Assembly (NCBI GenBank): GCA_030062745.1
Contig: CP099844.1
Span: 22,196,596 to 22,260,595 of the forward strand
Direction: 5' to 3'
Length of the DNA: 64,000 nt
Origin: Capitulum mitella
Lineage: Eukaryota > Arthropoda > Thecostraca > Pollicipedomorpha > Pollicipedidae
Numbering within the stretch: the first letter of the stretch is position 1; each line of letters opens with the position of its first letter. Under the pieces are notes generated by a model. It was not told where the DNA came from, searched no databases, and saw only the letters and a list, made by a program, of their open reading frames with translations. Below, piece after piece: positions 2,929 to 45,985 of this stretch. Position numbers and translations under genes: made by a program.

Positions 2929-3120
2929 ATGGCTGATCGGGGGGGGGAGGGGGCATCGGGACCATGGCCACTTCTTTCATTGGAAAAGCGGAGTCGACAT
3001 GTCTTTTGACCCCTTTTTCGAAGGAAAATTGCATCTTTTTGCTTCCGAAATATAAAAAAGTTATTTTTCGAGAATGTCGAAACAAAGTGCTGAAATCCGG
3101 CGAAATATCAACAATTTGGA
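2929..3120. repeat. Dispersed repeat copy related to 52525-52745
   Basis: A G-run followed by a GGGGGCATCGGG string, then TT(T)CxTTGGAAAAG, a T-rich centre, and a closing GAAACAAAGTG...CGGAATCCG-like segment. The same order of landmarks occurs at 52525-52745. Degenerate transposon-derived repeat of unknown class. Confidence 0.45.
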
Positions 3121-7880: not shown

Positions 7881-7899
7881 TCGGTGACATGTCTCAAAG

Positions 7900-8098
7900 T
7901 CAGACTTGTAAGCCGGCAGATTCAGATTCAGAATCGAATCAGAGCCGATTTCATTCACCAGCTCTTACTGAATTAGGACCAGGTTTCCTTTTCAACAGTT
8001 GTGAGTCGGAATCGGAATCAGGATCACCTTTGGGCTCAAGAGTCAGAATCGAATCGGTTCACAGAGTTCTTGAGAATCGACTCCCCAGTCCTGATTAA
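7900..8098. repeat. Degenerate hexamer array (TCAGAA / GAATCG type)
   Basis: Interrupted repeats of GATTCAGA, GAATCGAATC and GGAATCGGAATCAGGATCA fill the interval. The same word family reappears at 12030-12135, suggesting the simple repeat is part of, or spread with, a dispersed element. Confidence 0.6.
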
Positions 8099-9559: not shown

Positions 9560-9955
9560 CTTCAGTGTCCCTGGACCCCCATCCGTTTCGGTTGGCCTCC
9601 TTCGATCTAGCTCGATCTCCATTAGTCTCTGTTGGTCTTCTTTGGTCTCCGTCAGTCTATCAGTCTTCCAATCTCTCTGAAACTCGTCTGATGTGTGTCG
9701 GTCTCTGTCGGTCTCAACCGATCTTCGTCGGTTTCTTTTGGTCGTTACCGGTCTCCACCGGTCTCCACCGGTCTCTGTCGATCTCCGTCGGTCCGCCGAT
9801 CTGTCAATCTCTATCGGTCTCCTCGGTGTCCCTTAATCTCCCCCATATTCACCCAACCTATCGTTGTTCCTCCACAGTCACTCGTTTCTGTCTGTCTCTG
9901 TCTCTTGTTCTGTCTCCGTCTCATTTCCCGTATCTGTCTCTGTCTACCAATGTCA
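9560..9955. repeat. Pyrimidine-rich degenerate tandem repeat (GGTCTCCGTC-like)
   Basis: About 400 bp with strong strand asymmetry: runs of T/C-rich words such as TCGGTCTC, CCACCGGTCTC (consecutive near-perfect copies around 9750-9780), then TCTGTCTCTGTCTC. The two overlapping plus-strand open frames across it (118 and 197 codons) are repeat translations rich in Ser, Leu and Val, not a protein gene. Such tracts can form triplex or slipped structures. Confidence 0.7.
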
Positions 9956-12029
9956 ATTCATCCCTGTGTAACCCTGTTTGTGTTTGTCTATCTGCTTCTG
10001 TATCTGACCAAACCTTTATGCCTATTACAACGGCATTTTTTGATCATGTAACGAATTCTGGAATCTCGAAATTGGAGACCGTGCCAAGGTCAAACCGGGC
10101 AAGATGGAATGATACAGTTTTTAGTTCAACAACAAGAGAAGCTGGTTTTCGATCGTGACCAACAAAACGCGATACGCGGGCCTTTTTTGTACGCCTTCAT
10201 TTGAATCGACCACGATACATCAGACAGCTTATACTGACGTGCTCACAATTGATTCAGGAACATAGCGGTAGAATTGAAAACCGTATGTTCCCAGTCGTGT
10301 CGCCACGGTCTTCAATCGAACATAAATACCTCGAAATGTATCGATTTTCCGCAAAATCACAACTTGCACCGGTTTACTTGTTGCGTCATAACAGCACAGG
10401 TTATGGGAGTTATTATCATTATTTCAATGCAGCGTCAAAACGATGAAAATCCCCTCGTTCCACTGGCGTTAATTTTGCCGAAAATCTCACCCTCCATGTC
10501 ATCGCATTCACAGTGTAAACGCAAAGGACCCGAAAAACGAAAATGCGCCCAGTTTGAGCGCGTGCCGCGGTTACCCCGTTTGGGCGGACCAGGTCGGCGC
10601 AGTGGAATGATTTGCAGTCGGTACCCTGTGACGTGGGGTTACAGTCACCGAGTCGTCATAGTTAAAGGTTCAGTTTAGTGTTAACCTATTTTGTAAAACT
10701 TGCAAACCGATCTTTTTAGTGTTCATGTGGCTAGCTTACGTCCCGTGCTGGTTCCCGCGAGCGGCGTTTTACATGACTGTTCTCGAACCGATTTTGTGTC
10801 GAACGGACTAGATTTCGTCTCGATGCGACCTGCGGTTGGCGAGATAAGACGCTGGGAAAGACACCGTGTCGGCGGTTGGCAATGGCCTCGAACTCATTTG
10901 AAAATGGGCGAAATCGCCTCCTGCTTCGGTTCATGTAGCGTTGCTACGTCGGAACGGACATGGCACACCTGATCAGTGTCTCGCATCATCGGGCGGCAAA
11001 AGATCGGACTTTCAGTTGGTACCAATGTCGTGTTAGACACTGACACCTTTGCATTCGAGATGCGCGTGTAAACCATGTTGAGCTCGTGCCCTGGCTGGTT
11101 GAGGACTGGCGGATGAGGTCGAGTTCGCTAAATGATTTTCTGCCGGTACCTTGTGATTGGTTATCGTGCCCTCGGCTTCGTATCTTTAACGGTTACCGAG
11201 ATCATAACCCCATTTTGAACCCTTGCAAAACTGGCATTTTTCATGTTCCCACGGCCAGCATGCGCCACGTGCCGGTAGCGGCTCGGCCTTTTCCGTACAA
11301 TGCAAACCCCCAAATTATTCGTTGTCGAGGGCACACAGTTTTGTGTCGGTGTGAACCGCAGTTTCCGAGACTGAACACTCGGAAGGCTCGTGCGTCTAAG
11401 TTTTTCGAAAAGATGTCGGATTTCGCACAAGGAACCCGAAAATCTAACATAATGCATTGTGCCACCAAACTCCTGAGACGGCCAAGTTCCAGCTGCGTGC
11501 GACCGGTAGTCTCGCCACACCAGCCCGTCAAAACCGAACTCCCACGGGGTCAGACAAAACGAGATTGGCGAAACACCTAGATTGTGTTTTTATGTTGCTC
11601 ATGATTCCACTAGCCGAAACCCCGTCAGTGATTTGCTTTTAAAATAGGCCTTGCGTCTTATTAAGCACAGATGTAAGAAACTTTATTTGTGCGTGATCAC
11701 TGTGGAGCATTTTTAACCTCACCAATGACCTTAGACACCAGCGTTTTACATCCTAGATTTTTTTGCGTCTTGACAGTCGATGCCAACTGAACTGGGAAAC
11801 ACGGCTCTTTACTGATACGCACCAATGCCATGCACGTCATGTGCGTATATGGATCAATGCTGCCTGATACTACCCCTTTAATCTGTGGCAGGTCTTAGGA
11901 TACGACAGGATTCAAAATTTGACTACTGCATTGATCAGACAAAATAAATCATCAAGGTTTTTGCTATATCACATGGAACTGAATCGTGAATCAAACCACA
12001 AATCATGAATCGTGAATTGAATCGATTGC
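9956..12029. other. Unassigned DNA, no gene seen
   Basis: Several open frames of 80-160 codons overlap on both strands (for example around 11086-11580) with no recognisable motif. CpG content is ordinary to high here. Confidence 0.5.
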
Positions 12030-12135
12030 TTGCAGTTAAAAATGGCTCTTGAATCAGAATCGAACAAATTCTCTGATTTCCCATGTGAATCGGAATCAGA
12101 ATCAGAATCACCTTCTCGGCTGTTTATCAGAATCG
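12030..12135. repeat. Degenerate hexamer array, sister of 7900-8098
   Basis: Repeats of GAATCAGAATC and GGAATCAGAATCAG, with a following TTTATCAGAATCGAAC segment. It matches the word family and order seen at 7900-8098. Confidence 0.55.
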
Positions 12136-12693
12136 AACAGACTCCTAATGTCGTGAATCGCTTACAAGCCTGCTCAGTCTCAGTCGTTGAAAACTCTTGG
12201 AAGATTCGGTACGACCAAACATTCCAGCGATCACTTGGCCGCCGTATCCGATGAGAATATAAGGTACCGACTGAACTTCATCATGATGCAGAATCAGCGA
12301 AATGTACGAGGAGAAAAGTCGGCTGTTACATTATCCAGTGAATGAGGGCATTCAGTCCGTTTGCGTTCAAGTGACGATTTAAGCAAAACAAAACGTAGGA
12401 TAATACATATGACGATCTTTTGAAATCGAGGAATCTCGATAGTGACTGTTTTAGCGCTTGTCATGACAGATTTCATCCCTTCTAAGCATTCTCTACAATA
12501 AAAAGCGGGAAAGGTCTAATGGGAAGTTTTCATGATGGTCGGTACTACGGTTATGGTACTTGACATATAAACGCATGGCTGAATCGTGGTACTACGTCAT
12601 TCTGCGGCTGCGAAGGCTGACAAGTAGGGATTTAAATACCTCCTTTTCATTGTTTCATTATGACTGTGCAGTACGATATGGCATGATACGGTA

Positions 12694-25000: not shown

Positions 25001-27196
25001 CCTAGAACAGGCCAAAGGCATAGGAATGTGTGTTTGGTCATTCCCGAAATTGTTTTGCGCCATTTCAGCCTCGAATTCGACACTGAACACGGAACTGGCA
25101 GCGTTTCATTGTGCAGTCTACAGAAAAACGTTACGCGCAGGTATTTTTTGGTCATCTGTCCATGACCTGACTTACTATCGACTTGAAACTTGATATGCTA
25201 GCAGAAGATGACATGTCCTGGTATATATGTCCCGGTTTGTTGGCTGAGATGATTATCACTCAAGTTCTGTGGGAGGAAATAACGTCCGAGTTGTGACCTC
25301 GAGCTGATCTCGTGACCTGCCCTCAGAGCAACTGATCTAGTTTTGTATTTTTTCAGTTGGTTATCTGTGAAGCCGTAACAGTTTTTAAAGTCTGTCTTTA
25401 AAACTGTATTCGTAACAGCAGTTTCAAGCCCTCCCTAAAAATGGCCTTTTGTCAAAACCATGGCCTGACTGGCCCGCTCTACCTGAATGATCCTTAACCC
25501 TATTCCCGGAGGGCTAGACGGTATGGTCGATTCCCGGGGGGGGGGGCGGATTCGGCCCCCCCCCCTGAGATCTCGAGAACTACTTGTCCGATTTCATCGC
25601 AACAAACGGCAATCGATTTGCTGTGACGTGAACTACATTTTTATAAAAAGACATTTTCAAAATTTTGAAATTTGTGGATACAGGGGAGCAAAAATGTCAA
25701 AATGGGGGGTACTTTTGGACTTCTTATAACTCCGTTGTTTATGGACCAATTTCGATGAAACTGGCATGAATCGAGAGGTCATGGATAGGGCTTTTACCAT
25801 GGGTCCGCAAATCTGAAATTTTGAGAAAATTCATGGGCGTTCACAGGGTTTCAAAAATAGGAGGATTAGTTTTCTAACAACTGAATGAACAAAAGAGGCA
25901 AACACCCTTTTTTGGCTTCTGCTAGTCATGTTATACTAAAGAAGTACAAATCGCATTACAATGTTTGTATAATGTTAGCATAGGCGGTGCCAGGGACATG
26001 AAAAAGGGGGAACTGTCATGGTCACACGTTTTTCAGATCAACTTGTGACCTTTGACCTTAAATGACTTCCAGTGACCTTGGGGTCACTTGGAATGATCTC
26101 GTGTGCATTTAATATTATTTCCAATCGTTTTCAATCATTTTAATTCACGCTATTTCCAAAAAAGTTATTTTATGACTATTGCGATATAGGGTACGCGCAC
26201 TGACATTTTAGCTCATAGCTCCGTGACCCGACCTGATATCAAGCTGAAACTTGGTACAGAAGTAGAAGGCACTATTCTACGTCATATATATTCCGGGCTT
26301 GTCATTTGAAAAAACGGCGTCGAAATTATTGCGAAAAAACAAATTTTGACTTTTGACCTTGACCTGACCTTGTAAAATGACCTCAGATAAACAAAAATAC
26401 ATCTGCACATTGCCCAACTATTTAGCTATACATCCATATAAAGTTTTAAGTTCTAGCTTTAAAACTCTGTTTTTGGCAGACATTTTCATTTTACCCTCAA
26501 TATGGCCAAAAATGGCATGAGGTGCCTCGCAAAAACGTTGCCTGGCTCCGCCCCTGAGCAAAATAGAATTTTGAAATTCTGTCACAGCACGTAGAAAGAA
26601 TAGCTAGGAAAAGTCACCAAGTTTCGTGAAGCTGTGCTAAAAAGCCTGGAATTGGCAAGCAAAAAACCCGAGGGGGGCGGATTCCGCCCCCCCCTGCCGG
26701 GAATAGGGTTAAAGATCTTGGACAATTTTTTAAGCTAAATGATTCGCTTTTCAATCCTGTATAGCTGTTCCAAATTTGGTGCGGCTGTGCCGCACCGTTC
26801 TGGACGTATTACAGAAAAACCCGGGTGGTTTGGGAGTTAAAGTGACCCACCTGAGCAAATGTCAAGTGTTCAAGGCCTCCTTCACAAGTTTTATGAATGC
26901 TATGATGTCCGGTTGTATTTGGAGATGAGAAGTTGAGTGTCGCCAGCGGACTGTGTAACGCTAATGTTACCGTTAATAGAGCCTTACTGTAGGTGTCAAA
27001 CAATGCATTCCCTTATTTTTCGGGACAATTTCAACAAGCCCCGTTTCACGCTGAAAAGATTTCGCCTATAGCCATGTCCGCTTAAGCGTCAATGCCTGGA
27101 AAATGGTCTGAGGCTATGCGGGAATCCAGCCGGTCATCCTACGACGGATGTCGGAATGTCGGAGAAGCAAATGCTGGGGAGAGTATCGTGAGTATT

Positions 27197-31700: not shown

Positions 31701-34700
31701 CGGAAATTACCTTAATTATGATTGGTTTAGGAGATCGATCGATAGACTTGAGCGTAGAAAGGCCACTGACCTTCCACCGCCTCAATGGTTGTCAAGCATA
31801 CACAGAAACAGTCCTGCATAAAAAACCTCACATTGACCAAATTCCTGAGGAAGAAGCATGGGCGCAGCCTTAAGGGGTGAGCCCGGAGCTCAGTGTGACC
31901 TGAGATCATACGAAAACCACCGCTGGGAGGACGATACGCAAGCTTTCACAAAAATGCAGGCCTACGGGGGCCCCCCTTTCGCTTCGCCGATGGAAAGAAG
32001 GCACAACAAAGCTCATATTCAGACTATAGGTATATAAACCGTTCATATTTACGAAATGGGGCTAAAGATAAGTTTCTGCCTGACGAAATCGCAAACAGCC
32101 GTTTGTATAATTGCCATCAATGTAAAGAATGTATCATCGTGTTTCTAACCATACTTTCCACTACTTGATTTTCTAAAAAATAACAACAAAATCGTAAACG
32201 ATAACGTACCATACAGTAATACCATACTGCAGTCGATTGGCGGAGAACAACATTATTCCGCGGCGGAAAATGTAGTGCTGCCAAAGTTAAGGTTATTGAC
32301 ATCAAGGATGTGTAGACCCTGCGTGCATCTTCAAGCGATTAATGACGTCATACATATGAAAATTCTATTCTGTTGCCTCTGTTGCCACAAACTGAACTTG
32401 GAGGAACTGCTGAATTATTACGCCGTTATATTGTTGTATTAGATAATTGTTGGGATATCTGATATCAGTATTATTACATTATGGCATTTAATACTCGTTA
32501 GATTACATTAGGTTGCTAGGTTGGGTTGTGCTGGGCCAGGTTAGATAAAATTAGGTTAGGTTAGGTTAGGTTAGGTTAGGTTAGGTTAGGTTAGGTTAGG
32601 TTAGGCTAGGCTAGGCTAGGCTAGGCTAGGCTAGGCTAGGCTAGGTTAGGTTAGGTTAGGTTAATGTTAATTTTTTATTTATTGTTTTATTTCACTTCCT
32701 AATATTTTCCAGTTTTGTTCCGTGATTTCTTTTCCAGATATTTTATTTCACTGCTTTTTATTTTTGGTATTTTTCAAATTGCAACTTCACTTTCATTTTT
32801 ACTTTTTTATTATTATTGTTGTTTGTTGTTATTATTGCTATTTTATTATTATTTTATTATTATTATTACTACTATTATTTTCATTATTATTGTTATTATT
32901 GATACAATGACTAACTTTTTTATTTTAAAGATAATTTATATCGCATTAGTTATTTCCCCAACCTTTTTTATTACTCTTGATTACACCTTGAGTCCGAGCG
33001 ACGACCAATCAGCGTCGAGATCTCACGTAAACAAACTATTTAACGCAGAAACGTCAAAAATCCCTACGCGAGGGTCTAGCGGTTAGCACACTAGAGACGA
33101 CGCAATCTGTTTCGGGGGGAATAATGTGTGTTTCGGGTTTTTCCGGCTGAAATCGTAAGTAGTATTTATCAATATTGCATTTGAAGCGCCATGCAACCGC
33201 TACTACGATTATTTTCTCTCGAAGTAAGTGCTCTTTCAAAATCTTACTGTTGACCCGAAATCGGCTTGAAAGCCCTCGTGAATAACGTCAAAACCTGTTG
33301 ACATGACCTGGCAATCATTATTTAACGCGAAAGGAATGCAAGGTCAGCCAATACAAATTCCAGATTCTTGACACCAGCCGCTCGCTGGCAATAAAAAAGA
33401 TCAGGAATGGGAACACTCATCAAACTACTTTACACATGGATTAATTGAACATGGATCACTCTGCGCAATTATACGCAGTATTTAAGCACCTCCCGCATGG
33501 TCTAGTGGCTAGGATACACGGCTCTCACCCGTGAGGCCCGGGTTCGATTCCCGGTGCGGGAACGCTTTTTCGCATTTCGGTTGGGTTGCGCTAATTTTTA
33601 TGATTATAATACCCATGCCCCAACGTTACTGGTTCTCACCCTTGAAGCCTACTATGCTATATAATGAAAATGCCTTTTCGGCATTTTTGGGGTGTTACAT
33701 ACACGCTTCAAAACAACGCACGCCAAGGACTCCTGAAGAATAAGTTATCACGAGGTATATATTTAAGTATATATTTTCTGTTTATTACGAGGACCACTAG
33801 AACACGTATCAGCTCGTGCATAACAAATAAAAAGAACATAACAAAAAAAAGGCTTCCAGTGGTCCAAAACTCACATAAAACATCAACAACGTGGAGCACG
33901 GGTGTAACAGATGTCAGGCCAGCTGGGGCCTTACCAATTACGGTATGAATCACCGTTTTTATGTGCATGAGATATCTGGCGATGCATGAAAAAAACAAAA
34001 TCACTCTGACCTGGCCCCTTCCTCTTCCCACACCACAGACCAAGCCATCATGTTTTGAGAGTTCTCAAAAGCTTGGAGAACTTAGCCCCTCATACTGCTA
34101 GGATGCACATGCTAGTGTACATCAGGCATCCATACCACTACCGACATCTAGCGTTAGGCATATCAAACCTTAGTTCATAGAATTACTTCATCTGGCTGAA
34201 AGACGCCTCAATGGAGATAAATCGAATTGTTTTGGGACTGAGCAAAGGCGCGGGAAGCGGGGGTGGGGTGGGGGTGGGGGCGCAAGGGGCAGCGCCCCCG
34301 AACTTTTTTAAAATTTAAGACTCCCCTATGATCAATGACTGGAAAAAATTGACATTAAATGCTTCTTTGCCGTCGCCCCCCTCAACTGTGGAGTTCCCGC
34401 GCCCCTGGAACTCTGTATCATCTCAGCACATTTTCAGCTTGTTATAAAGGTGCATAACGTAAATATATGTAATTTAGGTCTTAATGACATACGATCTGAT
34501 TACTTCTCCACTTCTTGGCGCAAATCAGTGCTGCTAGGTCAGCAACGTTAGCCCTGGTCGTACAGTTCTTCGGATGTGTGGTTTTAAAATCAATGTCCGC
34601 AGCTGCCATGGGACCATAGAAACAAAGACCATTAGGTCTCTCGACCAAAGATTAACAACCACGCTGATAACACCCATTTTCAGGCTTAAACGCTGTGGAA

Positions 34701-37700
34701 AAACAAACGGGACAATAAACAATGCGCACAAAGTACTGCGTACAGCATCCCGCCCCTTACTGATGCAAACAAAATCCCGGTCACATTTTAACGCAGAAAC
34801 ACTTGATTTCAGTAAAGAAAATCGTGCAAAGACACGTCCACCACCAGAAGTCATTTAACGTCCGCCTCCAAGTCTGAAAATGGCCCCTGCAACGCTGGTG
34901 GATCAGACAATGAATCCATATTGTACCAGAAATGGGCCCGGTTTGATGTGAACGGCGGGGACGGTGGAGAGCCGTTCCAGCCGTCCTGGTCAACGTCCGC
35001 TTAACGCTGACTACTGTAGCGCACACGTTACAAATGCCTTCCCCTACGATGAATACCGAACAGACAAGGACACGCGCGCACTAATTAACGTGTCAGTCTG
35101 TTACACGTAACACCAGATCCTCCCCACGAACGCAGGGACCGCACTTGACACAGTGTCAAGACAGACACTTGACGGGTCGCGTGGATTGCAATTAATGTCA
35201 GCAAGAAAATCTCTGGAGAGGGCCTTACTACGACTGCTCGTTATGACGATATCAGCACTATGCAACACAACGGAGCGTATGAGGGGAACGGCGCCAACAA
35301 ATGTCACAGAGAACGAAGACAAGGAGTCGAGCTCGGATGTACGTCCGTGTAACTGTGGTCCGCTCCGGAGAACACTGGCTGAGCCCAGCGGCAGCGCGCG
35401 GCAGCTGACAAAGGCTCGAAAATATCGCTCAAGACCGCCCATAACGCCTTGCTCATTTTTCACTGAAACTGTGGCATATTTTATATTTTTTATATATTTT
35501 ATTATTTTTATTATTATATTTATATATTTCAAATATTATATTAATTATTATTATATTAGATATTATTCATTATATATTTAGTATTATTATCATATTATTA
35601 TATTCTCCACCCTCGAATATTTAGCAACTTGGAATAAACAGAAAGCAGGAATGATGTCCACCAACCGTCCACGAAACGACTTCCATCAAATGACCCTTAA
35701 CTCGACGGGAATCTACCGGCGCCTTTCTCTGCGCAACGTCAACCTCGTAAAACAAGGTCGGACTGAACGCTCCAGCCGAACCTCGGTTGCGCCGCGGGCC
35801 CGGGGCCACGCCCGCCAGAGGCCAGCGCTTCCGACCGATGTCGCGGCAGCTTACCCGGAACAGGGCGATCCAGTCCCAGCCGGAGATGTCGAGCGCGTGG
35901 TCCCGCCGGTACTTGGCCACGCAGTCAGCGCCCACCAGCCACTGGGAGATGGGAAGGAACTCCACACAGGGCAGTGGCCGGTCGGAGAACACCTGCAAAC
36001 GGCAGCCACACGGTCTAAATGGTAGCGGGGGACAGGAGCTCTACACAAGGCAGGAGCCGATCGGACAGCCCCTGAAACAGCAGCCGGTCGGTCTACATAC
36101 TAGTCAGAGGCAGGGACTCCATGCATAACGCTCGACGTCCTGTGGTCCAATCTGATTGAAATCCCACAGGTCGCGACAAAGTAAGACGGCTCAGACACAC
36201 GCAAAAAGCCGTTTTAAATGCATGACAACTTTTATTTTGTAAGTTCACAGAAGAAAAATGGGTGTCCACGAGGCTCCTTACGTCCCACCATGATGTCCAA
36301 AGTAGACAACTGGACGCCGGGACAGAACGATGACCTCTCCGTACGTACACCCACCATACATCGCACCCCACGGCCGGCTCAATCTCGCGGAAATTCCCGG
36401 TGGCCGACCTTGATGTTGAACTCGGCCGACACGGGCTGGTGGTCGGACAGGCTGTACTCTGGGTGGCTCTGGTAGCTGAGCGGCTCGATCGACAGCTGCG
36501 CCTCCTCGTACACGTCCGGGTTGACCTTGTACAAGATCCGGTCCGTCCACGCCGGCCGGCGGCTGTCCAACAGGCCTCGGGACGTCACTCACGAGCAGGC
36601 CTATTGGCCGGGACAGGCGGCTCCCGCGCACGAGACGGAACTGATCACGGACGTGTCGCCTTTAAAAGACACCTCGGCCTTGTATCGGCGCTGTCGTCGA
36701 TCGTGTATCGGCAGCCGGCGACACAACACACTCGGTCGGCGGCTGTCCAACAGGCCAGGTCCGTTCACCGAGACATTCACCTCCCGCGCGCGAGAAAGGA
36801 TTGCCCATGAAGCGCTTCAGGAGACGCACCAGCAGTGCGTCAGCGCTGTCGTCGGCAGCCGGTGGCGGAAGACGCTCGGCCGGCGGCCGGACGCGGCTCA
36901 CGGCCGGAGGCAGCTCACGGCCGGACGCGGCTCACGGCCGGCCGGACGCGGCTCACGGCTAGACGTGGCTCACGGCTAGACGCGGCTCACGGCCGGACGC
37001 GGCTCACCTTTCGGCGTACTCGCTCCGCCGGCCCGGCACCAGCTTATAGGTCGGCTTGAACGTGATGGTGGGCTCGGCCAGCTCGGAGAAGGCCTGGCCG
37101 GTGGCGCGCGCCCAGCGCAGCTGGTCCAGTTCCAGCAGCGGCGTCAGGTCGTGCTCGGCCGCCATGCGGCGCACGGCCTCGTCCTCAGGCGCGCCGCTCT
37201 CGCCGCCCGCCAGGCGGAAGTTCAGGTCGCCCAGCCAGATCAGGTAGCTGGCGAAGGGACGGGTCCGCCGCGTGAACAGCGGACACGGAGACACACGCGG
37301 TCCTGACCAGCGGAAACAGGGCCGGACAGACCAGGTAACCGCCGGCGGCAGACGTCCACCGAGTGAGCAGCGCACGCAGGGGACACACGCGGTCCAGAAC
37401 AGCAGATACAACGGACACGTGCGGTCCTGGACAGCAGACACGGCGGACAAATGCAGTTCCAGCCAAACCAGGTAGATGTCCGCAGGGCGAGAGTAGGTGT
37501 GAGCAGCGGCAGCAGGACATAGGCGGTGGACCTGAACGGCCACGCTGAATGATTTTGCAGGAAACAAAGCAGACTGATCCGACTCAAGCACAGAGCACCC
37601 CAGTATGAGACAAGAACATTAGATAGCGGACCTACAACGCAGTGGCGCTTTCCCCCATCACCAAGCAAAAGTTCTTCACGTAGCCACGCGACCGGCAGAA

Positions 37701-39808
37701 CCCTAACTCCCCGCAGCCACTCACTCGTGGTAGAAGAGCTTGCGCGTGGCCGGGTCCTGGAAGTTGGTCTGGTCGACGATGTCGCAGTAGTTGCGCAGCC
37801 GCTCCGGCAGCAGATGGTCGTGCGCGGTCAGGTGGCAGTTGACCAGGCACAGACTGACGCCCATCAGCGACAGCCGCAGCGCCACCGCGCCCTTGTTACC
37901 CTGTCGCCGCACGGATGACGCTCAGACGGGGTGACAGGGACGGTCACCCGTTGGCAGCAGGAGGCAGGGATGGTCACCCGTCAGCAGAAGGAGACAGGGA
38001 CGGTCACTCGCCAGCAGGAGACAGGGACGGTCACCCGTCAGCAGGAGACAGGGACGGTCACCCGCCAGCAGAAGGACGGAGCACAGTGCGATGGGGGTGA
38101 CAGGATGGAAGCGTAATTAAACAGACTGGTGTTGCTGATGCAAATCATGCTGAAGGATAACATGCTAAAAGCCAGGCCACCATGCGAATCTGGCGAGAAA
38201 TACCATGATGATATCAAACGCTGGTACCAAGGTCCTAAATGGCCAAAAAAGCCACCACACGTTACCAATGCGTTCATATTCATAACTGTCCGACATTCCT
38301 AACACGACAACACCTCGCGCCGTATGCAGGATATTTATCCCACAGTCCAACACAACTGTCGCCGCCGCTAGGGCCGGACACTCACCCACATGCCGCCCAG
38401 TCCGAGCCGGATGTACTTGTCCTCGACCTCCCTGACGCGGACCACGTGAGGCCGCAGCACGTAGACGGAGAGCACGATGCCCTGCAGGCGGACGGCCCGC
38501 AGTCGGACGTAGCCGCGAGGCGCCAGCGTCCGCCTACGGCCGCGGAGAAGCTCCAGTGGTCACGGTCCGGTCACGCACTCAAGTTTGGCGCAACGATCAA
38601 TAGATGGCACTGCGGCTGGCGAGGGAGACGAACGTGCGCCGGAAGAGGACGAGCATTCACACACTATTGATTTATGACCAAAACAGAATGTACGTAAGAC
38701 AAGACCAGAAGGACAGATATCAAAGTCTGTGAAGACAATATCAATAATAATGTGGCGATAATCATGATGATAAAAATAGCAGAACTCCAGCTAATACTTC
38801 TACATGCATTTTGTTACAAGTTTCTAATCATTTTGTTTAAAACAAGAGATTAATGCTTTTCAATGTAGAGGCCTTAACAATGAAATAAAAGGATAGAGCA
38901 AAATGCTTACCTTCAAAAACATATCAAACCATGCATATGCTTACTTGAACAAGGCTGCCCATGGATCATCGAAGAAGGAGTCGTAAACATAGTTTTGCGG
39001 TTGTGATTTCACCTCTTGACATCTGGAAAGCAACCGTGGGCACAAATCTTTTGTGGAAAAGGACTTATCCAGTATCCAAATTTTGCTGAATAAAGCTTTA
39101 TAGCTGCCACAACAAAACATCAAAAATTATTTCAAAAAACTCCAGTTACTGAGTGCAAGCATGCCAAGCAACTGTAAGAGCATATACCTCATTGCTATTT
39201 CACCTACCCAATGACATAAACATCTGGCTGGGTAGTTTCCTCTGTTCTGTTGTCAAATCCAAGAAGACGTCTAAGATTAATTCTTAGATCGGGAAAAACT
39301 GTGGCCACATTGTAAGTGACCACATATATCCTGCAAGAAGTCTCAGGTGAATTGGCATGATGACAGACACACAGCATCTGACATTGGCCTGGCCAGAGAT
39401 GGAACTGGATGCCAAGTTACCTATGACAAATGCTAATAAAGATATTGGTCTGAACAATAATGATGCAGTTTACAATAATGCTTGTAGCAATCACTGCACA
39501 CAAATCCAGTTCCTTTTCACAGAACACATTTTGATTGTCTGGTTCCATTTACATTGGGCAAAATGCAACATATACAAAGCTTAACACCATCATACAAGAC
39601 ATGCTTGTCACTTGTATGCAATTTGGTACACACCAAGCACTGTAATTAGCATTAAAAGCCCAAACAGGAAGCTTCATATTAAGAATTGCAGATAACAAGC
39701 CCTGGAAACTTGATTAACAATATTTTTTTAGGGATCTATGCAGTTGAACATAGCAGAGCATTTACTTTGTCTCAAACTACATTTAGGTACTTACTTCAGG
39801 TTTTCCAT
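17941..39808 (-). CDS. Inositol polyphosphate 5-phosphatase with SKICH domain (INPP5K/SKIP-like), 10 coding exons
   Basis: Predicted enzyme removing the 5-phosphate from phosphoinositides and soluble inositol phosphates; the vertebrate relative acts at the ER and plasma membrane in insulin/PI3K signalling. Exons joined on the minus strand: 39808-39795, 39330-39208, 39022-38945, 38533-38386, 37900-37725, 37247-37008, 36562-36409, 35992-35855, 19829-19712, 18269-17941. Every junction keeps phase and the total is 1518 bp (505 aa plus TAG; human INPP5K is about 448 aa). Catalytic domain about 5-311: TYNV (10-13), QEV with metal-binding Glu49, NCHL (142-145), signature WLGDLNFR (184-191), RRPAWTDRIL (261-270), SDHQPV (299-304). 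SKICH about 315-421, including DWIALFR and DEYVSYIW. A Glu/Pro-rich tail of about 85 residues follows. No long N-terminal extension, so INPP5K rather than INPP5J. The start is the first ATG of the exon-1 frame. Exon 7 uses a weak GTCGGC donor. An upstream 5'UTR exon is likely but not located. Confidence 0.9.
18270..19711 (-). other. Phosphatase intron 9, GC-rich
   Basis: Bounded by GTGAGG and GTTGCAG. 18560-19340 is strongly GC- and CpG-rich and open in opposing frames of about 200 codons (18754-19353 plus, 18593-19207 minus). These frames are dominated by Arg, Pro, Gly and Ala and carry no domain, so I regard them as compositional. Confidence 0.75.
19712..19829 (-). CDS. Phosphatase coding exon 9 (SKICH, middle)
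   Basis: 118 bp, aa 358-397, acceptor CCCGCAG, donor GTGAGG. It opens ADFASLDEYVSYIWAP, equivalent to the D(Y/E)YVSYxW segment of SKICH, exactly where exon 8 leaves off, and ends EDSVTMPG. It is 16 kb from exon 8, but the domain match and phase (0 in, 1 out) are exact. Confidence 0.9.
20030..20500. repeat. Degenerate minisatellite, about 30-45 bp units (GATACCATACCGGG...GGACACGGAGC)
   Basis: The words GATA(C/T)CATACCGGG, TCCGGACACGGAGC and GATATTATACCAxG recur about eight times in the same order with substitutions and missing pieces. Preceded at 19940-19990 by short palindromes around ACGTTATATAACGT. Confidence 0.65.
20979..21028. repeat. (TA)n microsatellite, about 50 bp
   Basis: Uninterrupted alternating AT. 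Confidence 0.97.
21977..22030. repeat. (TA)n microsatellite, about 54 bp
   Basis: Uninterrupted alternating AT. Confidence 0.97.
25498..26708. mobile_element. TTAA-flanked non-autonomous DNA transposon, family 1 copy A (piggyBac-type)
   Basis: A 1211-bp element between two TTAA tetranucleotides (25494-25497 and 26709-26712). Terminal inverted repeats: left CCCTATTCCCGGAGGG, right CCCTGCCGGGAATAGGG. Near each end is a GC hairpin-like string, GGGGGCGGATTCxGCCCCC. No open reading frame of note, so it depends on a transposase made elsewhere. TTAA target duplication with CCC-starting termini is typical of piggyBac. A second copy (44463-45667) matches end to end. A related repeat at about 41930-42240 lacks the insertion and aligns across the joined flanks. 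The interior carries a perfect DR1-like TGACCT-T-TGACCT (26046-26058) and an overlapping run of TGACCTTGACCTGACCTTG (26354-26372). Confidence 0.88.
27200..27245. repeat. (TA)n microsatellite, about 46 bp
   Basis: Uninterrupted alternating AT. Confidence 0.97.
27754..27805. repeat. (TA)n microsatellite, about 52 bp, in an AT-rich tract
   Basis: Alternating AT preceded by about 200 bp of TTAATAAA-rich DNA (27570-27750). Confidence 0.95.
27891..28121 (+). pseudogene. Fragment of a repetitive, probably transposon-derived arthropod protein
   Basis: An open frame of about 76 codons ending at a stop, with a possible acceptor (CATAG) near its start and no ATG. It contains NDNAERVV, HDQEQLQFLLQDIAEHR and FPDSKKTTL. 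From memory, the pattern ND-x-AER-x-V ... EEQ-x-QFLLQ-VV-x-x-HR ... PD recurs at the C-terminus of high-copy uncharacterised proteins in aphids and other arthropods, probably encoded by transposons. Only this C-terminal part is seen here. Family identity is tentative. Confidence 0.4.
28676..28735. repeat. (TA)n microsatellite, about 60 bp
   Basis: Uninterrupted alternating AT. Confidence 0.97.
29303..29475 (+). mobile_element. hAT-like MITE copy
   Basis: Starts CAGTGGCGCAGCCAGGATTT, a hAT-type terminus. It shares TTAAGGGG, a G-run, GTGACCTGAAATCATACGAAAA, GGGAAGAC and GCGGGCCTAAGGGGG with the copies at 30541-30698 (inverted) and 31862-31985. The right end is diverged. Confidence 0.65.
30541..30698 (-). 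mobile_element. hAT-like MITE copy, full length, inverted
   Basis: About 158 bp with inverted ends CATAGGCGTAGCC (left) and GGCTGCGTCCCTG (right). The reverse complement runs collinear with the copy at 29303-29475. The CAGNGGCGTAGC-type end is typical of invertebrate hAT families. It has no coding capacity. Confidence 0.7.
31862..31985 (+). mobile_element. hAT-like MITE copy, truncated
   Basis: GCGCAGCCTTAAGGGGTGAG, then TGACCTGAGATCATACGAAAA, GGGAGGACGATACG and GCAGGCCTACGGGGGCCC, collinear with 29303-29475. The left terminus is eroded. Confidence 0.6.
32551..32660. repeat. Interstitial arthropod-type telomeric array (TTAGG)11-(CTAGG)8-(TTAGG)3
   Basis: Twenty-two perfect pentamers in one frame: eleven TTAGG (32551-32605), eight CTAGG (32606-32645), three TTAGG (32646-32660). 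Degenerate GGTTAG-like words precede it from 32505. TTAGG is the ancestral arthropod telomere repeat. The site is inside intron 8 of a gene, so this is an interstitial telomeric sequence, not a chromosome end. Confidence 0.93.
32800..32905. repeat. (TTA)n/(TTG)n-rich microsatellite tract
   Basis: Interrupted TTATTATTATTGTTG runs in a T-rich stretch that begins just after the telomere-type array. Long plus-strand open frames here are repeat translation. Confidence 0.85.
33491..33562 (+). tRNA. tRNA-Glu (anticodon CTC)
   Basis: A 72-nt cloverleaf. Acceptor TCCCGCA pairs with TGCGGGA, discriminator A33562. The anticodon stem CACGG/CCGTG closes a 7-nt loop CTCTCAC with anticodon CTC at 33524-33526. 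The T arm CCGGG/CCCGG encloses TTCGATT. Box A is TGGTCTAGTGG and box B GGTTCGATTCC, both consensus. A T5 pol III terminator follows at about 33566-33570. There is no intron and no encoded CCA, as usual in eukaryotes. All stems pair, so it is probably functional. It lies in intron 8 of the phosphatase gene on the opposite strand. Confidence 0.97.
34240..34408. mobile_element. hAT-like MITE (GGCGCGGGAA ends)
   Basis: Left end AAGGCGCGGGAAGCGGGGG and right end GAGTTCCCGCGCCCCTGG form inverted repeats about 165 bp apart. The interior (CCCCCGAACTTTTTT...AATGCTTCTTTGCC) matches 41255-41412 in order, and 47648-47700 looks like a fragment of the same family. Confidence 0.6.
35470..35610. repeat. AT-rich low-complexity tract
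   Basis: ATT/TTA/ATA-rich, nearly free of G and C for about 140 bp, within intron 8 and about 250 bp from exon 8. Confidence 0.85.
35855..35992 (-). CDS. Phosphatase coding exon 8 (start of SKICH)
   Basis: 138 bp, 46 codons, aa 312-357, phase 0 at both ends, acceptor TTTGCAG, donor GTAAGC. It encodes the first half of the SKICH domain, ending SGWDWIALFR; the W-D-W-I-x-L-(Y/F) core is diagnostic for SKICH in INPP5K, INPP5J and CALCOCO/TAX1BP1 proteins. Confidence 0.9.
35993..36408 (-). other. Phosphatase intron 7
   Basis: Bounded by GTCGGC and TTTGCAG. No feature recognised inside. Confidence 0.8.
36409..36562 (-). CDS. Phosphatase coding exon 7 (catalytic signature 2)
   Basis: 154 bp, aa 260-311, acceptor GGACAG. 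It contains RRPAWTDRILYK, the second signature (xPxWxDRxL) with the catalytic Asp, and SDHQPVSAEF with the conserved SDH. The donor is AAG/GTCGGC, a weak site. If unspliced, translation continues eight codons and stops at TGA, giving a phosphatase without SKICH. Confidence 0.92.
36557..36756. repeat. Exon-7 acceptor duplicated 180 bp upstream
   Basis: The 20-bp string starting CGGCGGCTGTCC is present at 36557-36576, where it spans the intron/exon-7 border, and again at 36737-36756 inside intron 6. The copy brings along the acceptor TTGGACAG and the first six exon bases, creating a decoy acceptor. Flanking segments (CTCCCGCGCxCGAGA) are also shared, so the duplicated block is larger than 20 bp but diverged. 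Confidence 0.8.
36890..37007. repeat. Intron-6 tandem repeat of about 17 bp that repeats the splice donor
   Basis: Six units of GCGGCTCACGGCCGGAC (plus strand) abut exon 6. On the transcribed minus strand each unit carries GTGAGC (GTGAGCTG in one), the same hexamer as the real exon-6 donor at 37002-37007. The real site differs by its AAAG context on the exon side; the decoys are preceded by GCC. Confidence 0.88.
37008..37247 (-). CDS. Phosphatase coding exon 6 (catalytic signature 1)
   Basis: 240 bp, aa 180-260, acceptor CGCCAG, donor GTGAGC. It contains IWLGDLNFRL, the first 5-phosphatase signature with the metal-coordinating Asp and Asn, and ends PTITFKPTYKL...SEYAE, the conserved F.PTYK segment. 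Its donor is the first unit of a tandem repeat that extends into the intron (36890-37007). Confidence 0.95.
37270..37460. repeat. Degenerate intron-5 repeat (GACACACGCGGTCC)
   Basis: Words such as GGACACxCGCGGTCC and CGGACACGTGCGGTCC recur at irregular spacing of about 30-65 bp between exons 5 and 6. An old, decayed minisatellite. Confidence 0.5.
37725..37900 (-). CDS. Phosphatase coding exon 5
   Basis: 176 bp, aa 122-180, acceptor GACAG, donor GTGAGT. It begins GNKGAVALRL, the invariant GNKGxV motif, and includes LVNCHLTAHD, whose His is a catalytic residue of the fold. The last codon (Asp180) is split with exon 6. Confidence 0.95.
37901..38385 (-). other. Phosphatase intron 4 with minisatellite
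   Basis: Bounded by GTGAGT and ACAG. Most of it is the 27-30-bp minisatellite listed separately; the remainder has no feature. Confidence 0.85.
37934..38080. repeat. Intronic minisatellite, about five 27-30-bp units
   Basis: Units read ACAGGGACGGTCACCCG followed by xxCAGCAGxAGG. The five copies differ mainly by 1-3-bp indels and single substitutions. It starts about 34 bp from the exon-5 boundary. Confidence 0.9.
38386..38533 (-). CDS. Phosphatase coding exon 4
   Basis: 148 bp, aa 72-121, acceptor CCGTAG, donor GTGAGT. It encodes GYVRLRAVRLQGIVLSVYV, the conserved RxQG(I/M)xLLVF strand, and ends GLGGMW directly before GNKGAV. Codon use switches sharply to GC-rich here relative to exons 1-3. 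Confidence 0.93.
38945..39022 (-). CDS. Phosphatase coding exon 3
   Basis: 78 bp, aa 46-72, acceptor TTCCAG, donor GTAAGC. It contains CQEVKSQ, where the Glu is the expected Mg-binding residue, and ends FFDDPWAALFK, matching the conserved (F)DDPW/DSW segment of the family. The residue before QE is Cys rather than the common Leu/Phe/Met. Confidence 0.92.
39208..39330 (-). CDS. Phosphatase coding exon 2
   Basis: 123 bp, aa 5-46, acceptor TTGCAG, donor GTAGGT. It opens with IYVVTYNV, the conserved N-terminal strand of 5-phosphatases (usually TWNV; here Trp is replaced by Tyr), and ends with PDVYVIG just before the QEV motif. Codon choice is AT-rich, unlike exons 4-10. Confidence 0.9.
39795..39808 (-). 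CDS. Phosphatase coding exon 1 (initiator Met)
   Basis: Encodes Met-Glu-Asn-Leu and two bases of Lys5. The donor is a consensus GTAAGT. The frame stays open upstream of the ATG to a possible acceptor (CTTTAG, about 24 bp further up), so the ATG probably sits in an exon that also carries 5'UTR. The exon lies in the CpG-free block. Support is the phase match with exon 2 and a start position close to that of vertebrate INPP5K. Confidence 0.72.
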
Positions 39809-40694
39809 GTGAATGTAAGATGAATGTTTCTGATCTAAAGCAGGTAGACAGCCCTAATACACCTGGTGGAAGCTTAAATCATTATAAGGCACAAACATCA
39901 ACAAACACCAGCAATGGACAGCCTCTGAGCATTACTTGCAGTGGGTGGGAAACAGAAAATCCCTTGCATTATATAGCTAGAAACACAAAATTTTCAGGAT
40001 AGGTGACATCTATACTTAAATCTGTTACATCATTATTAAATGCTGCTGAAATGCTGCACTGCCATTACCATTACCATTAGGTTGCATCTAGATTTTGACA
40101 CTCTAGGCTAATACCTTTTGAGTCAAATAAGGAAAGATTCCTAAATTTGGTGAATTTGACAGCTCTGTTTTTGGACCTGTCATCTTGACCATGACAAGGT
40201 AGAGAAAATCAGGCTGGATTTTTTTGTCTGGATGTGACAGTTTGGATCAATTTGGAAATGACTAGATCACATCAAACAAACCACACATATCTAGGCCATG
40301 TAGGTACCATAAAGCTACAGTCAAATCAGCTAAAGGTACATTTCTGCCTGACAAAATCCCAAACAATCCTTTGTATGATTGCCACTAATTTGCATAATTC
40401 AGTTAGGTTACCATACCTGCTTCTCACTGAATGAAGACAGTCATATGCTTACAGTTAGGAATTTGTGAACATGGTAATAATGCAGATTTTGATGGAGGTG
40501 CAGGACCAGAGTTTGGGAATATAAAATGCATTTAGGAGACAGATTATTGGCATTCCTGAAGACCAGAAAACAATGCCTTTTCCAACCCTGCCCCTCAGCC
40601 AAGAAGTTTACACCAGACATTTGGCAGTTTTGCAGAAGACAGAAATGATCATGCATATATATGCTACAAATAAGAAATGTACATTTTTCCTGGC

Positions 40695-40830
40695 ATTTAA
40701 TATGAGGCCAGTTACATGACAATGCTGCCTTTTCTTGTAAATTTTGTCATATGCCAGTGGCATGTTACAAATTTGATATTTGGACCTCCTCCCTTCCTGA
40801 GGAAAATGCTGACTTTGAGTCTCATGTTAA
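40695..40830. repeat. Dispersed repeat copy with decayed CpGs
   Basis: Matches 42378-42495 in order: ATATGAGGxCAGTTAC, TGCxGCCTTTTCTT, TTxxCATxTGCCAxTGGCAT, GACAAA/TACAAA, CCTCCC. Where the other copy has CCGCC and TTCGCC, this one has CTGCC and TTTGTC, that is CpG to TpG changes. Confidence 0.7.
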
Positions 40831-40849
40831 GCCTTTGCTGAACATTTCG

Positions 40850-41250
40850 GCCTGGAAAATTATAGTCTGAGGTTTTCAAACAGCAGCAACTCCCTCCCAG
40901 CACTCTCAAGGAATGCAAGTTAATCCCGCCCATTCCATCAACTGCTTTGAACCGATGAATGCATCGAGGTCTGATAGCTCTACAACAGGAAGATACATTT
41001 CACGACATTTATTCACCGGACAGTAAGCTTTAAATTGTTTACGAGTGTAGGAAATCAGGCAACTATTCCACTTAAAATTATATGGGTGCTCAGTACCCTC
41101 TGCCCAGGCTTTTCACGCAAGCGTACGGCCCTATCCGCATTCGTTGTGCCGCTCTGAGGAAGGTTTCCAAGTTGTTGTGCGCCAAAAATGCAATTTATGC
41201 GTCAATAATTGACCCTGTAGTGACGGAGCAAAGCATAGTAAAGCTCCAGC
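40850..41250. other. Probable upstream flank of the phosphatase gene
   Basis: CpG returns from 40848 onward. No TATA box or recognisable initiator stands out on the minus strand. No other gene seen. Confidence 0.4.
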
Positions 41251-41254
41251 AAGA

Positions 41255-41412
41255 ACGCGGGAAGCGGAGGGATGGGGAGAAAGGAGGGGGACGCGGGCCC
41301 CAACTTTTCTGGAATTTGGCACTTATCTCTTGGGCGTTGATGGAAAGAATTGACCCAGAATGTTTCTTTGCCCCCCACTCCATCAGCTGTGTAGAGTTCC
41401 AGTGCCCCTGAG
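41255..41412. mobile_element. hAT-like MITE, copy related to 34240-34408
   Basis: GCGGGAAGCGGAGGGATGG, GGGCCCCAACTTTTxTGGAATTT, GAATGTTTCTTTGCCCCCC and AGAGTTCCAGTGCCCCTGA follow the order of the 34.3-kb copy. Confidence 0.55.
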
Positions 41413-42240: not shown

Positions 42241-42499
42241 CAAGGGAGGCCATGGAGTCATGCCCCCCCCGAGCCAAACGGTCTGCACTAAATATATAGC
42301 GATTTCGCGTGAATACGTAATAGAGATCATATAGGTATATGTTGCAAATCCAAACACCATATCTATTCCAGCTGATTAAATATGAGGTCAGTTACCTCAA
42401 TTTGCCGCCTTTTCTTATGAATTTCGCCATTTGCCAATGGCATATGACAAAATTGGACATTTGCCCCCCTCCCCCAAGGCAGTCCTGGCTACGTGCCTG

Positions 42500-44252: not shown

Positions 44253-44462
44253 CTAATTTGCCAAAGAGGAGTCCAGACAAACCAAAACCTCCTCAAAATC
44301 GAAAAGTCCTGGAATCTCGGCCACTTTATTCCCGAGTTGCAGATTATTTTTGCTTTCGTTTTTTGGTCCATAAAAAGTAAAATATTTAGTCCAAGGGGAA
44401 AGGAGCATGGCCTCTTTGCCACCGCTTGGCTACGCCTCTGATGTGAAGTGGTATTTGTTTAA
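44253..44462. repeat. Fragment of a hAT-like element, almost identical to 61803-62012
   Basis: About 208 bp with only two differences I can see from the copy at 61803-62012. The right terminus GGCTACGCCTCTG is intact; the left one is replaced by a CTCGAGATCTCGAG-type simple sequence. The shared block runs on to TTTGTTTAA, where TTAA element 1B begins in this copy. Confidence 0.85.
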
Positions 44463-45667
44463 CCCTATTCCCGGAGGGCGGTATGGTCGATTTCCGGCAG
44501 AGGGGGGGGGCGGATTCCGCCCCCCCCCCTGAGATCTCGAGAACTACACATCCGATTTTATCGCAACAAACGGCAATCGATTTGCCATGATGTGAACTAC
44601 ATTTAAAAAAGAAATTTTCAAAATTTTGAAAGGGGTGGATACAATGGGGCAAAAATATCGAAATGGGGGGTGCTTTTGGGCTTCTTATAACTCCGTTGTT
44701 TATGGTCCGATTTCAATGAAATTAACATGAATCGAGAGATTTTGGATAGGACTTTTACTATTGATACACACATTTGAAATTTTGAGAAAATTCATGGGCG
44801 TTCACAGGGTTTTTAAAAATAGGAGGATTAGTTTTCTAAAAACTGAATGAAGCAAAGAGGTAAAAACACTTTTTTTGGCTTCTGCTAGTCATGTCATGCT
44901 AAACAAGCACAAATCGTATTACAATGTTCGCATAATGTGAACATGGGCGGTGCCAGGGACATGAAAAAGGGTGAACAGTTATGGTCATATGCTCTTGAGA
45001 TCAACTAGTAACCTTTGACCTTAAATGATTTCCAGTGACCTTGGGGTCACTTGGAATGATTTCGTGTGCATTTAATGTTGTCTGTAAACGTTTTCAATCA
45101 TTTGAATTCACGCTATTTCAAAAATTCCATTTTATCGCTACTGTGACATAGGGCACGCGCACTGACATTTTAGGCCATGGCTCCGTGATCCGACCTGATA
45201 TCAAGCTGAAACTTCATACACAAGTAGAGGGCACCATTCTACGTCATATCTATTCCGGGGTTGGCAATTCAAAAAATATCGCCGAAGTTATTACTATGAA
45301 ACCAAATTTTGACTTTTGTCCTTGACCTGACCTTGTAAAGCGGCCTCAGACGAACAAAATTGTATTTGCATGTTGCCCAACTGTTAAGCCATACATCCAT
45401 ATAAGTTTTAAGTTTCATCTTAAAAACGCTATTTTTGACAGTCATTTTCCTTTTATCCTCAACAAGGCCAAAATTGGCCTGAGGTGCCTCCCAAAAACGT
45501 CCTCTGGCTCCGCCCCTGAGCAAAACAGAATTTCGAAATTTTGTCACAGTACGTAGAAAGAATAGCTGGGAAAAGTCACCAAGTTCCGTGAAGCTGCGTC
45601 AAAAACCCTGGAATTAGCAAGCAAAAAACCCGAGGGGGGTGGATTCAGCCCCCTGCCGGGAATAGGG
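44463..45667. mobile_element. TTAA-flanked non-autonomous DNA transposon, family 1 copy B
   Basis: A 1205-bp element between TTAA 44459-44462 and TTAA 45668-45671. Left end CCCTATTCCCGGAGGG; right end CCCCTGCCGGGAATAGGG. It aligns along its whole length with copy A (25498-26708), with substitutions every few tens of bases and small indels. The DR1-like motif of copy A is degraded here (TAACCT-T-TGACCT). Confidence 0.88.
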
Positions 45668-45671
45668 TTAA

Positions 45672-45985
45672 AACCATGGTCTGGTGCATCACTGTCACGG
45701 AATCCAGTCTACGTACACAAAAGGTATCCTGCTGACCATGCAGGCATCCAAAATTTCAGGATTTGTTTCATTTTATACATCCTCAGTCTATCAAGGCATG
45801 ACACTATGGTAATACTTAAAAAGGGAATCCTAAAAAGTACTTTGATTCCCTAACATTCTGGGACATTCCTGTGCCCCTGTGCCTCATTCGCAATATACCC
45901 ATGACCTGGACAGTGAATATAATTTGCCTTGCTTAAAGGAAGGAACTAAGTGCGTAAGTACAATAAAATGCAATGTGAAGATTTG
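45672..45985. other. Unassigned DNA, no gene seen
   Basis: No motif recognised. Confidence 0.5.

What the first reader, a model, noticed from the sequence alone, without database searches (positions are those of the whole stretch)
39292..40847. A 1.56-kb stretch without a single CpG at the 5' end of the phosphatase gene
Seen directly: no CG dinucleotide between 39292 and 40847, against a CpG-rich background in most of the window. TG and CA are plentiful, as expected from deamination of methylated CpG. The block covers coding exon 1, intron 1 and the upstream side, and depletion fades through intron 2 and exon 3. In arthropods, germline methylation is concentrated in the 5' part of housekeeping genes. 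The simplest reading is a long-lived methylated domain whose upper edge (40848-40925) marks the transcription start area.
Basis: partly seen in the sequence, partly recalled or inferred. Interest (0 to 1): 0.75.

Follow-up and report, generated by a model that had tools for sequence, protein, structure and literature searches.

The report
CpG-free methylation scar at gene start
In what looks like a barnacle genome, the first two kilobases or so of a lipid-phosphatase gene have lost almost every CG letter pair, the scar expected from long-standing DNA methylation in the germ line, and similar scars lie at the starts of at least two other genes read there.

Summary
In detail: no CpG between 39290 and 40848 (56 expected; next longest gap in the window 240 bp; window o/e 1.00). 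TG and CA excess is symmetric and closes the CpG budget. The whole CpG-poor domain is 38694-40927 (8 CpG, 80 expected). It covers coding exons 1-3 and 1.1 kb upstream of an INPP5K-type phosphatase gene, probably of a barnacle; coding exon 1 is a 14-nt exon at 39795-39808. It ends sharply inside intron 3; exons 4-8 have normal CpG.

New evidence: a repeat copy in the block keeps 0 of 6 family CpG sites, 11 copies elsewhere keep 56 of 65. Of 20 systematic 10-kb genome samples 3 hold a similar domain: at the 5' end of DDRGK1, between SLC66A2 and eEF1-delta, and at an unidentified gene. A proteasome gene chosen beforehand has one; a cuticle gene does not. The genome encodes DNMT1.

Unlike the insect pattern, introns and old repeats are erased as fully as exons. 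Methylation itself and the transcription start are untested.

The parts
39292..40847 (.). CpG-free block (1556 bp)
   Evidence: 0 CpG, 56.3 expected; TG 1.55, CA 1.56
38694..40927 (.). Whole CpG-poor domain, maximum-likelihood segment (2234 bp, 8 CpG against 80 expected)
   Evidence: score 57.4, next best segment in window 9.0; composition
39795..39808 (-). Coding exon 1 (ATG, 14 nt, MENL) of the INPP5K-type phosphatase; an acceptor candidate at 39834 would make it a 40-nt exon with 5' UTR
   Evidence: phase-matched donor GTAAGT; start aligns with residue 1 of a stick-insect orthologue; acceptor
39208..39330 (-). Coding exon 2
38945..39022 (-). Coding exon 3
38386..38533 (-). Coding exon 4, CpG o/e 1.13
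37725..37900 (-). Coding exon 5, CpG o/e 1.02
37008..37247 (-). Coding exon 6, CpG o/e 1.04
36409..36562 (-). Coding exon 7, CpG o/e 1.05; weak donor (GTCGGC)
35855..35992 (-). Coding exon 8, CpG o/e 0.77; the gene goes on further, not modelled
38534..38693 (.). Sharp lower border inside intron 3: CpG back to o/e 1.22
40848..41300 (.). CpG-normal upstream side (o/e 0.79), candidate promoter or transcription-start area, inferred
40586..40814 (.). Old copy of repeat family B inside the block; 0 of 6 family CpG sites kept
40395..40597 (.). Copy of repeat family A inside the block (no clear consensus CpG in the six copies seen, so not informative)
40329..40384 (.). Third repeat fragment inside the block; its relative at 32061-32116 has three CpGs, which read CA, CC, CC in the block
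42375..42473 (.). Repeat family B copy outside the domain; its two CpGs both read TG in the block

Best explanation
This is the mutational footprint of a stable germline-methylated domain over the 5' part of a transcribed gene, here an INPP5K-type inositol polyphosphate 5-phosphatase. [quoted passage not shown] 5-methylcytosine deaminated to T on both strands, so CpGs became TpG and CpA until almost none were left, in introns, 5' flank and old repeat copies alike; a few CpGs in coding exons 2 and 3 remain, probably held by selection on the protein. The domain begins near the start of transcription and stops in intron 3, so the rest of the gene and the surrounding window keep normal CpG. Shown: the depletion, its borders, the TG/CA balance, site-by-site CpG loss in an inserted repeat, the gene model, recurrence in an unbiased sample, a DNMT1 gene. 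Inferred: methylation itself, germline timing, transcription start, broad expression of this gene.
For: CpG 0 of 56 expected, TG and CA about equally enriched. Budget: excess TG+CA over the window baseline is 83 in the block; restoring them gives GC 43.4% and an expectation of 73 CpG. Repeat family B: 6 CpG sites kept in 56 of 65 cases in 11 outside copies, 0 of 6 in the block copy, where 3 read TG or CA, one AA, one AG (CA if a gap is moved by one base), one gapped. The most diverged outside copy (19.4% at non-CpG sites) keeps 5 of 6; the block copy stands at 23.3%. Arg codons: exons 1-3 use AGA 3, CGT 1; exons 4-8 use CGN 26, AGG 1. Recurrence: 3 of 20 systematic 10-kb samples. L014: domain 2315-4617 (3 of 73 CpG) begins 35 bp after the ATG of a DDRGK1 gene and fills the front of its long first intron, while later exons have normal CpG (exon 1 assigned by eye). 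A proteasome-alpha (PSMA1-like) gene has o/e 0.12, 0.00, 0.00, 0.22 in the 1 kb on the 5' side of its first recognised exon. DNMT1 exons found (E 1e-33 to solved DNMT1).
Against: No methylation or transcript data could be reached. The transcription start was not located and no good donor site lies in 39790-41300. In the sample on C8 one CpG-poor segment covers the 3' half of an intronless eEF1-delta ORF, not its start. The gene of the third sample domain is unidentified. Exon-biased methylation, the rule in insects, is not what is seen. The six repeat family A copies seen have o/e 0.13-0.41, four of them with flanks at 0.76 or more, so about 200 bp of the block may have arrived CpG-poor. On the + strand of the block TC (0.71) and GT (0.72) are low while their complements GA (1.01) and AC (1.05) are not, a strand asymmetry that CpG methylation does not explain. 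The DNMT3 question did not complete.
Confidence: 0.86

Rival explanations
1. Methylation aimed at repeats: the block is about 31% repeat-derived, and repeat silencing rather than gene methylation erased the CpGs, spreading into the gene.
For: 476 of 1556 bp are repeat family A, B or the third fragment; another sample domain (L016) also holds a family A copy.
Against: Eleven family B copies elsewhere keep 56 of 65 CpG sites, with flanks at o/e 0.64-1.21, so this repeat does not attract loss by itself. The part of the block without a listed repeat match (39292-40328; one search scored 40 of 2993 candidates) is equally empty. The crayfish methylome paper reports that repeats inside genes are more methylated than repeats outside (PMC6172769, passages).
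Confidence: 0.05
2. An unmethylated but CpG-avoiding sequence: base composition, selection against CpG, or a CpG-poor insertion.
For: The block is AT-richer than the window; the family A copies seen are CpG-poor.
Against: Matched-GC windows have o/e 0.97; TG and CA excess matches the missing CpG; the block holds coding exon 1 and part of exon 2, joining in frame to the rest; CpGs of an inserted repeat are lost site by site.
Confidence: 0.03
3. Cytosine deamination without methylation, coupled to transcription or to an enzyme that edits single strands.
For: The domain sits at the start of a gene, where R-loops can form (general knowledge). TC and GT are low on the + strand only.
Against: The CpG loss is close to strand-symmetric (TG excess 46, CA excess 55), and C is not short before A, C or T in the block (CA 1.56, CC 1.07, CT 0.97).
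Confidence: 0.03
4. Promoter methylation of a silenced or tissue-restricted gene, rather than transcribed-region methylation of an active one.
For: The domain reaches 1.1 kb upstream of the ATG and the transcription start is unknown. Lewis et al. 2020 report promoter methylation in Strigamia and Planococcus (PMC7343188, passages).
Against: In the DDRGK1 locus the domain starts 35 bp inside the coding region and runs downstream. DDRGK1 and proteasome genes are, from general knowledge, broadly expressed; the one cuticle gene read has o/e 1.06.
Confidence: 0.06

Closest known systems
5'-biased gene-body CpG methylation of Hymenoptera and Daphnia
   Same: Confined to the 5' part of a subset of genes. 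[quoted passage not shown] in Daphnia methylation peaks at exons 2-4 (PMC6097596, passages).
   Different: In those species exons are methylated and introns much less; here intron 1 and the upper part of intron 3 are emptied as fully as any exon (o/e 0.00 and 0.16), and most of the residue sits in exons.
Gene methylation of other crustaceans (marbled crayfish, Parhyale, Armadillidium)
   Same: Little exon-intron difference was reported for Parhyale and Armadillidium (PMC7343188, passages); in crayfish repeats inside genes are more methylated than those outside (PMC6172769, passages).
   Different: The same passages report that genes of the two crustaceans studied by Lewis et al. have lost targeted methylation; here there are short domains (0.9-2.3 kb), nearly CpG-free, in a genome whose background o/e is 1.03 in the 17 domain-free samples.
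Historical CpG depletion in the copepod Eurytemora
   Same: Depletion read as past gene-body methylation (PMC11706791, passages).
   Different: There whole gene bodies are low (unimodal, mean 0.5); here depletion is local and almost complete.
CpG depletion in the stick insect Medauroidea
   Same: CpG loss with TG and CA gain taken as a signature of germline methylation (PMC2747282, passages).
   Different: There repeats are methylated too; here family B copies outside the domain keep most of their CpGs.

Membership tests
Invertebrate gene-body (5'-biased) CpG methylation, germline footprint | CpG depletion with matching, strand-symmetric TpG and CpA excess | tested here: met
Invertebrate gene-body (5'-biased) CpG methylation, germline footprint | Confined to the 5' part of a transcription unit, not the whole gene or genome | tested here: met
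   coding exons 1-3 low, exons 4-8 at o/e 0.77-1.13, window 1.00; the transcription start itself was not located
Invertebrate gene-body (5'-biased) CpG methylation, germline footprint | CpGs were present and were lost by C-to-T change | tested here: met
   repeat family B, 0 of 6 sites in block against 56 of 65 outside; 3 of the 6 read clear TG or CA, the others AA, AG and a gap
Invertebrate gene-body (5'-biased) CpG methylation, germline footprint | Recurs at other, preferably broadly expressed, genes and is absent from tissue-specific ones | tested here: inconclusive
Invertebrate gene-body (5'-biased) CpG methylation, germline footprint | Maintenance methyltransferase DNMT1 in the genome | tested here: met
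Invertebrate gene-body (5'-biased) CpG methylation, germline footprint | De novo methyltransferase DNMT3 in the genome (not universal in arthropods) | tested here: inconclusive
   PF00145 search listed four exon matches at two loci, DNMT1- and DNMT2-like; the direct query did not complete
Invertebrate gene-body (5'-biased) CpG methylation, germline footprint | 5-methylcytosine present at the locus in germ-line DNA | not testable with these tools
   no methylation data
Insect-type exon methylation | Exons methylated, introns much less | tested here: not met
   intron 1 o/e 0.00, intron 2 0.16, upper intron 3 0.16, exon 2 0.41, exon 3 0.82
Repeat-directed methylation | Repeat copies depleted wherever they lie | tested here: not met
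   family B copies outside keep 56 of 65 CpG sites; family A uninformative or slightly the other way

The most novel reading that the evidence does not exclude
In this lineage methylation is laid down by distance from the transcription start, as a domain of fairly fixed length (about 2.2-2.3 kb) blind to exons, introns and repeats: three of the five domains measured end to end are 2234, 2303 and 2294 bp, and at one locus two domains flank a CpG-normal gap between what look like divergent genes. The other two domains (1494 and 910 bp) do not fit a single length.
Probability: 0.15. Interest if true: 0.68.

Novelty: new member of a known kind. Interest (0 to 1): 0.5.

Why it matters
None of the papers listed by my searches of the held library is a barnacle methylome (searches listed all their 6, 4 and 2 papers; some searches listed 12 of 36, 10 of 928 and 12 of 158,617), and the main text of PMC8821070, a survey of 138 Ecdysozoa, has no hit for barnacle, Amphibalanus, Thecostraca, Hexanauplia or Pollicipes. 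The locus suggests that barnacles keep a strong, sharply bounded germline methylation system at gene starts. Because the background is near o/e 1 and the domains near 0.04-0.10, CpG counts alone might map methylated gene starts genome-wide here. Old repeats caught in the domains act as natural clocks. The uniform loss in introns would help separate the idea that methylation follows exons or nucleosomes from the idea that it follows transcription near the start.

Tried and rejected
Rejected as causes: low GC, CpG-poor foreign insertion (in-frame gene model), strand-biased deamination (though TC and GT asymmetry stays unexplained), repeat-directed loss.

Led nowhere: Pfam scans of 140 other window ORFs found no second gene to serve as a control inside the window. 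The donor search for a 5' UTR exon found none. The six family A copies have no consensus CpG and cannot test deamination. Pfam did not identify the gene beside the third sample domain (weak TAF4, E 0.0037). Only one proteasome gene and one cuticle gene could be read, out of about 13 proteasome genes among 25 exon matches and 150 listed cuticle matches. The chaperonin family (PF00118) and DNMT3 queries did not complete. No structure prediction was run.

Dropped or chosen rows: L010, L014, L016 were left out of the 17-locus background because they hold domains; the rule for calling a domain (score 25 or more) was written down, where the three scored 26.6, 65.2 and 69.3 and nothing else above 14.5. 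Family B copies used are the 11 outside loci handed out of 42 listed matches, the ones most like the block, which works against seeing kept CpGs. The L014, L022 and window 42375 copies were compared apart. ORF lists for Pfam were filtered by length, entropy or composition, and I gave 140 of the 150 refs listed, 96 of the 150 (20 ORFs of those loci went). Names DDRGK1, SLC66A2, PSMA1, Tob and exon 1 of DDRGK1 rest partly on my reading by eye.

Full report
Observation. CpGs stand at 39290 and 40848 with none between. From the block's own composition 56.3 are expected; 2000 shuffles gave at least 37. The next longest gap in the window is 240 bp. The 95% upper bound on o/e is 0.05; at o/e 0.2 a run of this length would have a chance of about 1e-5. 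A likelihood segmentation puts the low-CpG domain at 38694-40927 (score 57.4, next 9.0).

Signature. TG and CA are at 1.55 and 1.56, excess 46 and 55. Counted above the window's baseline, 83 extra TG+CA are present; putting them back gives GC 43.4% and 73 expected CpG. This is what C-to-T change at CpG on both strands predicts. Most of the low GC follows from it rather than causes it: windows of equal GC have o/e 0.97. One feature is not explained: on the + strand TC (0.71) and GT (0.72) are low, GA (1.01) and AC (1.05) are not.

The gene. A minus-strand INPP5K-type 5-phosphatase was modelled over eight coding exons with matching phases; Pfam Exo_endo_phos2 E 2e-62, closest solved chain an INPP5K (22mj). 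Exon 1 is 14 nt (39795-39808), giving MENLKIYVVTYNVAT, which aligns from residue 1 with a stick-insect orthologue's MDNLRFYMVTYNVAT. The best hit is Amphibalanus amphitrite, 75% over exons 4-8; the other 119 listed of 1293 hits are at 42-50%. The window is therefore probably from another barnacle (inference). The Amphibalanus record begins with the part coded by exon 4, so about 70 residues coded by exons 1-3 appear to be missing from it.

Borders. Upstream of exon 1 (39809-40847) 0 of 37.7 expected; intron 1 0 of 16.4; exon 2 2 of 4.9; intron 2 1 of 6.4; exon 3 3 of 3.7; upper intron 3 1 of 6.2; lower intron 3 15 of 12.3; exons 4-8 o/e 0.77-1.13. The few CpGs left sit in coding exons more than chance allows (5 of 7, p 0.0004), as expected if selection keeps them.

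Direct test of loss. Search of the own genome (477 Mb, 16 contigs) showed that at least 476 bp of the block belong to repeats. For family B, 11 outside copies share six CpG sites, kept in 10, 10, 10, 10 of 11, 7 of 11 and 9 of 10; the block copy keeps none and reads AA, CA, TG, AG, TG, gap. The AG becomes CA if one gap is moved. The block copy is the oldest by non-CpG change (23.3% against 3.6-19.4%), and the next oldest keeps 5 of 6. Flanks of the outside copies have o/e 0.64-1.21. Two earlier pairs in the window agree: of five CpGs in outside copies none is kept, three read TG or CA, two CC. Six family A copies are all CpG-poor (0.13-0.41), four of them in flanks of 0.76 or more, and say nothing, or speak slightly against.

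Genome control. Of 20 systematic 10-kb stretches, 3 hold a long CpG-poor domain (scores 26.6, 65.2, 69.3; nothing else above 14.5); in all 20, of 13741 CpG gaps 4 exceed 500 bp and 1 exceeds 1000. Three in 0.2 Mb would mean some thousands in the genome (95% interval of the count 0.6-8.8). L014: DDRGK1, + strand; a DDRGK match among the scanned ORFs, exons at 5815-7356 by tblastn with a recalled human sequence, exon 1 with ATG at 2280 by eye; domain 2315-4617 with 3 of 73 CpG, later exons with normal CpG. C8 sample: domains 7785-10078 and 11782-12691 with a CpG-normal gap; SLC66A2 lies to the left on the minus strand, its first recognised coding exon 1.4 kb or more from the domain, an intronless eEF1-delta ORF to the right on the plus strand; a shared promoter in the gap would fit, but the second domain covers the 3' half of the eEF1-delta ORF, so this locus is only partly in favour. 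C2 sample: domain 8879-10372, then an unidentified plus-strand ORF. All five domains measured show o/e 0.04-0.10, TG 1.38-1.74, CA 1.32-1.68; the 17 domain-free samples 1.03, 1.10, 1.09. A cuticle gene has 1.06 over 2.1 kb. A Tob-like gene lies in a domain-free sample.

Machinery. PF00145 found two loci: DNMT1 (exon matches solved DNMT1, E 1e-33; further exons read by eye) and DNMT2 (E 2e-20). DNMT3 is open.

Mechanism and literature. Established knowledge: 5-methylcytosine deaminates to T, so regions methylated in the germ line lose CpG. Nasonia methylation is concentrated in the first 1 kb of coding sequence and falls away beyond 2 kb (PMC3794928, passages); Daphnia peaks at exons 2-4 with introns near zero (PMC6097596, passages); two crustaceans show little exon-intron difference, and there gene methylation is described as lost (PMC7343188, passages); crayfish repeats follow their gene (PMC6172769, passages). 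In the centipede Strigamia the low gene-body peak is at 0.62 (PMC4244043, passages), far above the values here, though whole gene bodies and domains are not the same measure. The locus fits the 5'-biased pattern in place, and is blind to introns and repeats.

Verdict. Observation confirmed and sharpened; the methylation reading is supported by independent tests; it is a strong and clean case of a known kind in a group for which the papers listed by my library searches include no methylome (three of these lists were capped). What is not shown: methylation itself, the transcription start, and how many and which genes carry such domains.

Noticed in passing
window 32551-32663: A (TTAGG)n array of about 22 units, the arthropod telomere repeat, in the interior of a chromosome-size contig.
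   Followed up: no
window 33491-33562: tRNA gene or tRNA-derived sequence by Rfam (63.5 bits).
   Followed up: no
P0001 (Amphibalanus amphitrite protein): The public barnacle phosphatase record starts with the part coded by exon 4; about 70 residues coded by the CpG-poor exons 1-3 appear to be missing from that annotation.
   Followed up: partly
L029:1463-2263: Intronless eEF1-delta ORF whose 3' half and flank are CpG-poor; a single-exon gene or an intact retrocopy.
   Followed up: partly
L032:2001-2500: The DNMT2 gene has a short CpG-poor stretch (2 of 17.6) next to an early exon, possibly a further 5' domain.
   Followed up: no
window 44459-45672 and 25494-26713: Two 1.2-kb repeat copies, 86% identical.
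   Followed up: no
C10 20.95-21.07 Mb, C10 28.58-28.75 Mb, C11 9.35-9.42 Mb, C13 17.71-17.86 Mb, C9 23.43-23.58 Mb of the own genome: Large tandem clusters of cuticle-protein (Chitin_bind_4) genes.
   Followed up: no
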